This document shows, in pieces, positions 10,580-11,341 of a stretch of DNA of 35,432 bases. The DNA is from Actinomycetota bacterium. Lineage in GTDB: Bacteria > Actinomycetota > Actinomycetes > Nanopelagicales > Nanopelagicaceae. The stretch covers positions 1 to 35,432 of the forward strand of contig WLIQ01000009.1 in assembly GCA_009726135.1 (NCBI GenBank). The letters run 5' to 3'. A model generated the notes under the pieces. It ran no database searches. It was not told where the DNA came from and saw nothing but the letters and a program-made list of their open reading frames with translations. Each line of letters opens with the position of its first letter. Positions within the stretch are counted from its first letter, which is position 1. Position numbers and translations under genes: made by a program.

Positions 10580-11341
10580 ATGATTAAAGAAATCAACGCA
10601 TCCAGTATTCGCCGCTACAACATCATCGCCGGTATTTTCCACTTAGCTCAAATGCTAGTGGTCCTATCCCTTGCCAATGATTTCACGCTTCCAATCGTTG
10701 CCCGCTATATGGCTGGTCCACCGGGAAGCACATTTGCCCAGCCAATTACTTTGCTTAATACCCCAGTTGGTTTAGCCGTTGCAATCTTTCTTGGTCTCTC
10801 TGCTTTCTTTCACTTTCTTGTCGCATCACCGCAATATTTTGGCCGCTATCAAGCTGGCATAGCTGCACAACGCAACTATTTCCGCTGGGTTGAATACAGC
10901 ATTAGCTCCTCAGTGATGATCGTGCTCATTTCCCAGATTTGTGGAATCACTGATGTCGCGGCAATTGTTGCAATCTTTGGAGTTAACGCATCCATGATCT
11001 TGTTCGGTTGGTTGCAAGAAAAATATGAAACCCCTGGAAACGGTGGCTGGCTTCCATTTATCTTTGGCTGCATTGCCGGAATAGTTCCGTGGCTAGGACT
11101 GGTTTTCTACATCTTTGCAATCGGTGGCCCTGGCGATACAAAGGCCCCTGCATTTGTCTACGGCATCGTTATCTCACTCTTTGTGCTCTTTAATACCTTT
11201 GCCGTTGTGCAGTATCTGCAATATAAAAAAGTTGGCAAATGGAGCGATTACATCAGGGGAGAGAAGACCTACATCACTCTGTCTTTGATTGCTAAATCAG
11301 CGCTTGCCTGGCAGATCTTTGCATCAACGCTGATTCAGTAA
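10580..11341 (+). CDS. HeR: Heliorhodopsin
   Basis: 7-TM 253-aa protein with FRWVEYSISSSVMIVLI (Glu105, counterion position), FGVNASMILFGWLQEKY, FGCIAGIVPWLGL, FVYGIVISLFVLFN, and retinal-lysine helix LSLIAKSALAWQIFASTLI (Lys239). Close by recall to actinobacterial heliorhodopsin 48C12. Confidence 0.95.
   Translation: MIKEINASSIRRYNIIAGIFHLAQMLVVLSLANDFTLPIVARYMAGPPGSTFAQPITLLNTPVGLAVAIFLGLSAFFHFLVASPQYFGRYQAGIAAQRNYFRWVEYSISSSVMIVLISQICGITDVAAIVAIFGVNASMILFGWLQEKYETPGNGGWLPFIFGCIAGIVPWLGLVFYIFAIGGPGDTKAPAFVYGIVISLFVLFNTFAVVQYLQYKKVGKWSDYIRGEKTYITLSLIAKSALAWQIFASTLIQ

What the first reader, a model, noticed from the sequence alone, without database searches (positions are those of the whole stretch)
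10580..11341. Complete heliorhodopsin gene
Encodes a 253-aa 7-TM protein with heliorhodopsin-specific helices, including WVEYSISSSVMIVLI (Glu105) and the retinal-binding SLIAKSALAWQIF (Lys239). Heliorhodopsins are non-pumping microbial rhodopsins with inverted topology whose physiological role remains unsettled. No retinal-producing gene (blh/brp, crt) is recognisable in this window, so retinal must come from elsewhere in the genome or the environment.
Basis: partly seen in the sequence, partly recalled or inferred. Interest (0 to 1): 0.85.

Follow-up and report, generated by a model that had tools for sequence, protein, structure and literature searches.

The report
Stand-alone heliorhodopsin in freshwater actinobacterium
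The gene is a genuine but ordinary light-sensing heliorhodopsin of an abundant lake bacterium, notable mainly because it no longer sits beside the nitrogen enzyme it accompanies in close relatives and because the genome lacks the known gene for its last pigment-making step.

Summary
In detail: 10580-11341 (+) encodes a complete 253-aa heliorhodopsin (Pfam PF18761 327 bits; NCBIfam equivalog NF038020 339 bits, cut-off 100; 67% identical to structurally solved 48C12), with Schiff-base Lys239, counterion Glu105 and Ser235. The host is a Ca. Planktophila/acI freshwater actinobacterium; 43 of 61 congeners carry the gene. It is a new sequence of a well-known family.

Tools added three points. (1) In many relatives HeR sits in a glutamine synthetase-HeR-leuA slot; here that slot is empty (21 bp between GS and leuA) and HeR stands alone. 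It remains under purifying selection and keeps the three lysines reported to bind GS, but so do nearly all congeners, so those lysines do not mark GS linkage. (2) HeR genes, including all 22 testable GS-linked ones, have their own leaderless-promoter signature (TANNNT 6-7 nt before ATG); the window's clade has TGNCACNNT. (3) The genome has crtE/I/B/Yc/Yd and actinorhodopsin but no blh or RPE65-type oxygenase, and the site where relatives carry blh is assembled and occupied by pnuC. Most likely it is a monocistronic, non-pumping photosensor using scavenged or unconventionally made retinal.

The parts
10580..11341 (+). heliorhodopsin (HeR), 253 aa; counterion Glu105, Ser235, Schiff-base Lys239 (SxxxK), ICL3 lysines 216/217/220
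   Evidence: translation, PF18761, NF038020, PDB 48C12 alignment
10565..10573 (+). putative extended -10 promoter TGG-CACTAT, ending 6 nt before the ATG (leaderless transcript predicted)
   Evidence: T-15, G-14, C-12, A-11, C-10, T-7 and C-3 invariant in 11 relatives while most flanking positions vary; 75 of 89 HeR upstreams have TANNNT ending 6-7 nt before the start
9977..10531 (-). divergent neighbour: DUF4287 + weak DUF1801 protein (184 aa), own TATTAT 6 nt before its ATG; 48 bp from HeR
   Evidence: PF14117 43 bits, PF08818 below cut-off; start read; same divergent arrangement in L043, L044, L046, L021, L060, L061, L062
11348..11719 (-). convergent downstream neighbour, 123-aa small hydrophobic protein with no family match; its stop lies 6 bp from the HeR stop, making HeR monocistronic
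   Evidence: ORF list, no Pfam family over cut-off, no NCBIfam match

Best explanation
The gene encodes a heliorhodopsin of 48C12/AbHeR type: a seven-helix, inverted membrane protein with all-trans retinal bound to Lys239 and counterion Glu105, which on green-light absorption changes conformation without pumping ions and passes the signal to a partner on its cytoplasmic face. Shown here: family, key residues, purifying selection, isolated gene position, empty glutamine-synthetase slot, missing blh. Inferred from characterised relatives: retinal binding, topology, absence of pumping, signalling by protein contact. In this lineage HeR left the GS-HeR-leuA cluster and is transcribed alone, probably from its own leaderless promoter, so any partner, GS included, must be reached in trans. 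Retinal is most likely taken up from other plankton or made from the cell's own beta-carotene by an unidentified enzyme.
For: Family and residues. Empty slot: in G000 GS ends at C71:544 and leuA starts at C71:569, gap 21 bp; in the complete relative G015, GS 379641-380954 is followed by leuA at 381100 and HeR lies at 928987; in G040 HeR lies between GS and leuA. The tree puts the window in a 12-row clade, all outside the slot, nested among GS-linked rows. K216, K217 and K220 retained (significance from PMC9529153). dN/dS median 0.059 in the relocated clade against 0.049 in the slot. Own promoter signature in HeR genes: 75/89, GS-linked 22/22, against 5/43 for leuA and a chance rate of 1.4%. 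No blh; crt genes present.
Against: No expression, binding or photocycle data exist for this protein. The retained lysines are conserved in nearly all congeners whether GS-linked or not, so they may reflect topology or fold rather than GS binding. The genome is 84% complete. The AlphaFold model was too poor to use (pLDDT 49). The promoter motif is a sequence pattern, not a mapped transcription start.
Confidence: 0.7

Rival explanations
1. HeR still regulates glutamine synthetase in trans: the relocated protein binds the GS dodecamer through its ICL3 lysines just as AbHeR does, and proximity in the genome was never required.
For: K216/K217/K220 identical to AbHeR; the same orthologous GS is present in the genome (C75 and C71 pieces); the window has Thr151, and removing the charge at E151 strengthened binding in AbHeR.
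Against: The lysines are equally conserved in GS-linked and unlinked congeners (32/33 against 57/58 for K216), so they do not track linkage. The reported AbHeR-GS affinity in detergent is weak (Kd 100 uM).
Confidence: 0.2
2. HeR works with the divergent DUF4287/DUF1801 protein as a photosensor-effector pair.
For: Same divergent arrangement in seven relatives (L043, L044, L046, L021, L060, L061, L062), with only about 48 bp between the genes, so the promoters are close together.
Against: Not co-directional; in L001/L058 the two genes are about 760 bp apart, and other clade members (L045, L047) do not show the pair. Most HeR loci have other neighbours.
Confidence: 0.1
3. It acts as a proton transporter, like the viral heliorhodopsin V2HeR3.
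For: Some viral HeRs transport protons (PMC9448325, abstract).
Against: The protein belongs with 48C12 and AbHeR, both measured as non-pumping, and keeps their residues at E107, S237 and K241.
Confidence: 0.02

Closest known systems
HeR 48C12 (PDB 6su3, 6su4, 6uh3)
   Same: 66.9% identity; E107/S237/K241, H23, H80, E149 and the retinal-pocket aromatics conserved
   Different: Different species; one residue differs in the checked set (S84 to A82); gene context differs
AbHeR of Actinobacteria bacterium IMCC26103 (PMC9529153)
   Same: Same residue numbering: E105, S109, S235, K239, K148, K216, K217, K220, D223
   Different: AbHeR is in a NAD synthetase-GS-HeR cluster; the window's is not. E151 in AbHeR is T151 here
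HeR of G015, a complete congener genome (L021)
   Same: 87% identical, also outside the GS slot, also divergent from DUF4287, also without blh
   Different: Separate species; GS-leuA gap 142 bp with a leu leader, against 21 bp here
HeR next to GS-leuA in Ca. Planktophila versatilis and IMCC25003 (L096, L059)
   Same: Same family, 79-86% identical
   Different: Located between GS and leuA; their genomes carry blh

Membership tests
Heliorhodopsin (type-3 rhodopsin) | Match to the heliorhodopsin profile above curated cut-off, not to type-1 rhodopsin | tested here: met
   PF18761 327.3 bits (cut-off 26.7) and no PF01036 hit at E<=1; NF038020 338.9 bits, cut-off 100
Heliorhodopsin (type-3 rhodopsin) | SxxxK motif in helix 7 with the retinal-binding lysine | tested here: met
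   S235-L-I-A-K239; aligns to 48C12 S237/K241; invariant in 91 congener sequences
Heliorhodopsin (type-3 rhodopsin) | Glu counterion (48C12 E107) and absence of the bacteriorhodopsin proton-donor Asp | tested here: met
   E105; Leu116 where bacteriorhodopsin has D96
Heliorhodopsin (type-3 rhodopsin) | Inverted topology, N-terminus inside | tested here: inconclusive
   Only by homology to solved 48C12; own model pLDDT 49, not usable
Heliorhodopsin (type-3 rhodopsin) | Binds retinal, slow photocycle, no ion transport | not testable with these tools
   Needs expression and spectroscopy
GS-group heliorhodopsin (AbHeR type) | Gene adjacent to glutamine synthetase | tested here: not met
   GS and leuA lie 21 bp apart on contig C71 without HeR; HeR is on C77
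GS-group heliorhodopsin (AbHeR type) | ICL3 lysines K216, K217, K220 required for GS binding | tested here: met
   All three present, but also present in nearly all non-GS-linked congeners, so not diagnostic

The most novel reading that the evidence does not exclude
Heliorhodopsin in Planktophila is an independently transcribed, mobile light-sensor gene that was ancestrally lodged between GS and leuA with its own leaderless promoter and left that cluster several times. The published GS-HeR 'operon' would then be partly a positional association, and the sensor would act on partners in trans. In blh-less lineages such as this one it would be charged by an unknown retinal-forming enzyme acting on the cell's own beta-carotene.
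Probability: 0.15. Interest if true: 0.55.

Novelty: new member of a known kind. Interest (0 to 1): 0.3.

Why it matters
Heliorhodopsins are common in freshwater actinobacteria, and their partner is still debated. The pair of arrangements in one genus (HeR inside or outside the GS-leuA slot) is a natural comparison for testing whether GS control needs gene linkage. The own-promoter signature is easily checked in transcript data and bears on arguments that infer function from 'operons'. The assembled carotenoid locus without blh adds a clear case to the open question of how blh-less rhodopsin bacteria obtain retinal.

Tried and rejected
AlphaFold model from 21 congener sequences: pLDDT 49, pTM 0.38, so no fold search was run. 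Link between HeR position and blh: none visible; after moving G028 and G060 to the slot class, slot 11 blh+/12 blh-, elsewhere 9/7. Conserved neighbours as partners: within 5 kb the commonest are GS, leuA and NAD synthetase (slot type) and otherwise scattered genes; DUF4287 and UbiA recur but not as co-directional partners of HeR in a fixed order. A sigma-70 consensus scan found no plus-strand promoter before HeR, which is expected for a -10-only leaderless site. Upstream start at 10514 rejected: it lies inside the divergent gene and has no support from relatives. RPE65-type oxygenase as alternative retinal source: absent in all 61 genomes, with working controls.

Full report
Observation. The frame at 10580-11341 (+) is open and encodes 253 residues. 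It matches Pfam heliorhodopsin end to end (6.8e-98) and NCBI's equivalog model. No other family matches. The nearest solved structures are 48C12 entries, 66.9% identical, with the key positions preserved: H23, H80, E107, Y108, S111, E149, F206, F209, Q213, S237, K241 map to identical residues. A longer frame from ATG 10514 exists, but relatives start at 10580.

Host and commonness. The window lies in a 1.37-Mb, 77-contig genome, 84% complete. Loci 80-98% identical come from freshwater actinobacterial MAGs, several labelled Candidatus Planktophila, and from IMCC25003. 43 of 61 sampled congeners carry the family, and 7,257 related proteins were scored in the large protein set, where the candidate limit was reached. 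So this is a new sequence of a familiar, abundant kind. The neighbours in the window are ordinary metabolic and transport genes.

Gene context. HeR is monocistronic. Upstream a DUF4287 gene (9977-10531) points away from it, 48 bp off; downstream a small hydrophobic protein gene (11348-11719) points towards it. The divergent DUF4287 arrangement recurs in L043, L044, L046, L021, L060, L061 and L062. Across 91 distinct congener loci, 33 have glutamine synthetase just upstream of HeR and many of these have leuA downstream, the cluster described for AbHeR (PMC9529153); HeR co-transcripts with GS and NAD synthetase have been seen in freshwater metatranscriptomes (PMC8612252).

The empty slot. In the window's own genome GS is split over two contig ends (C75 and C71) and its C-terminal piece is followed by leuA after 21 bp, with no HeR. 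The complete genome G015 shows the same without any assembly doubt: GS, 142 bp, leuA, and HeR about 550 kb away. G040 shows GS-HeR-leuA. On the HeR tree the window sits in a supported 12-row clade (97/80), all outside the slot and nested within a group that also holds GS-linked rows; the label needs 5 changes on the tree, at least 2 forced by supported branches. Because the same GS-HeR-leuA order appears in distant clades, I infer that the slot is ancestral and HeR left it more than once; the root is a midpoint, so this direction is inference.

Still functional after leaving. dN/dS (Nei-Gojobori, synonymous sites near saturation, so rough) is 0.059 in the relocated clade and 0.049 in the slot group; window against L043 gives 0.026. 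K216, K217 and K220, whose mutation abolished measurable GS binding in AbHeR, are all present. However, they are present in nearly all congeners of either context, so they are not evidence of a GS partnership by themselves. Position 151 differs: E or Q dominates in GS-linked sequences (27 of 33), T in the others (33 of 58).

Promoter. Among 89 distinct HeR upstream regions, 75 have TANNNT ending 6 or 7 nt before the start codon, and this holds for 22 of 22 of the GS-linked ones that could be tested. Shine-Dalgarno-like motifs appear in 2. Random positions give 1.4%, leuA gives 5 of 43 with SD-like motifs in 38, and NAD synthetase gives 18 of 18. I read this as the -10 pattern of leaderless genes, which are common in actinobacteria (general knowledge; PMC3898074 and PMC3160421 are listed but were not read here). 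The window's clade has a variant, TG-N-CACNNT with the same 6-nt spacing, invariant at T-15, G-14, C-12, A-11, C-10 and T-7. I conclude that HeR probably has its own promoter even inside the GS cluster; published work predicted a single promoter upstream of NAD synthetase. Read-through transcripts are compatible with both. GS itself gave 0 of 28, but its start codon was not verified, so that control is weak.

Retinal. The genome carries crtI-type desaturases, crtB and a GGPP-synthase-like gene on C21 with crtYc/Yd beside them, and an actinorhodopsin gene cut by a contig break (C18/C68, 121-bp overlap). It has no blh and no RPE65-type oxygenase. In G040 and G052 blh lies next to, and divergent from, crtYc/Yd; in the window's genome that spot is assembled and holds a pnuC-like transporter. 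The complete relative G015 also lacks blh. So absence is probably real despite 84% completeness. Rhodopsin-bearing acI without blh is already published (PMC5301498); both dependence on added retinal and endogenous retinal by an unknown pathway have been reported in other freshwater actinobacteria (PMC7734400). HeR presence and position show no visible link with blh (with G028 and G060 moved to the slot class because their HeR contigs carry GS).

Verdict. A true heliorhodopsin, already known in kind. The stand-alone position with an empty GS slot, and the own-promoter signature, are modest new details that make the GS-partner hypothesis testable by comparison within one genus.

Noticed in passing
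G053 contig C33 (HeR 4297-5022 -, blh 2630-3421 -): In one congener blh lies about 0.9 kb downstream of HeR on the same strand, a direct HeR-blh linkage.
   Followed up: no
GS-leuA intergenic regions of L133, L160, L161, L163, L164, L166, L167, L172, L180: In empty-slot genomes leuA is often preceded by a short ORF reading M..RSLLLSCRGGAK-stop followed by a GC-rich hairpin: it looks like a leucine attenuator. The window's genome has only 21 bp there.
   Followed up: partly
window 4516-5169 (+): UbiA-family prenyltransferase beside a copper amine oxidase; homologues lie within about 5 kb of HeR in 16 loci in varying positions, suggesting a shared flexible region. No specific function assigned.
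   Followed up: partly
G030 (C29:817-1542 and C19:672-1403): One congener seems to carry two different full-length heliorhodopsin genes.
   Followed up: no
window 1788-2615 (+): FdhD, the formate dehydrogenase accessory protein. Table 2 of PMC5301498 appears to give formate dehydrogenase only to tribe acI-A7 among four complete acI genomes, and that tribe also lacks blh, so the window may belong near it.
   Followed up: no
window 20483-35363: Sugar and sugar-acid utilisation region: ABC transporters, SDRs, gluconolactonase-like protein, GH125 and melibiase-like enzymes, LacI regulator.
   Followed up: no
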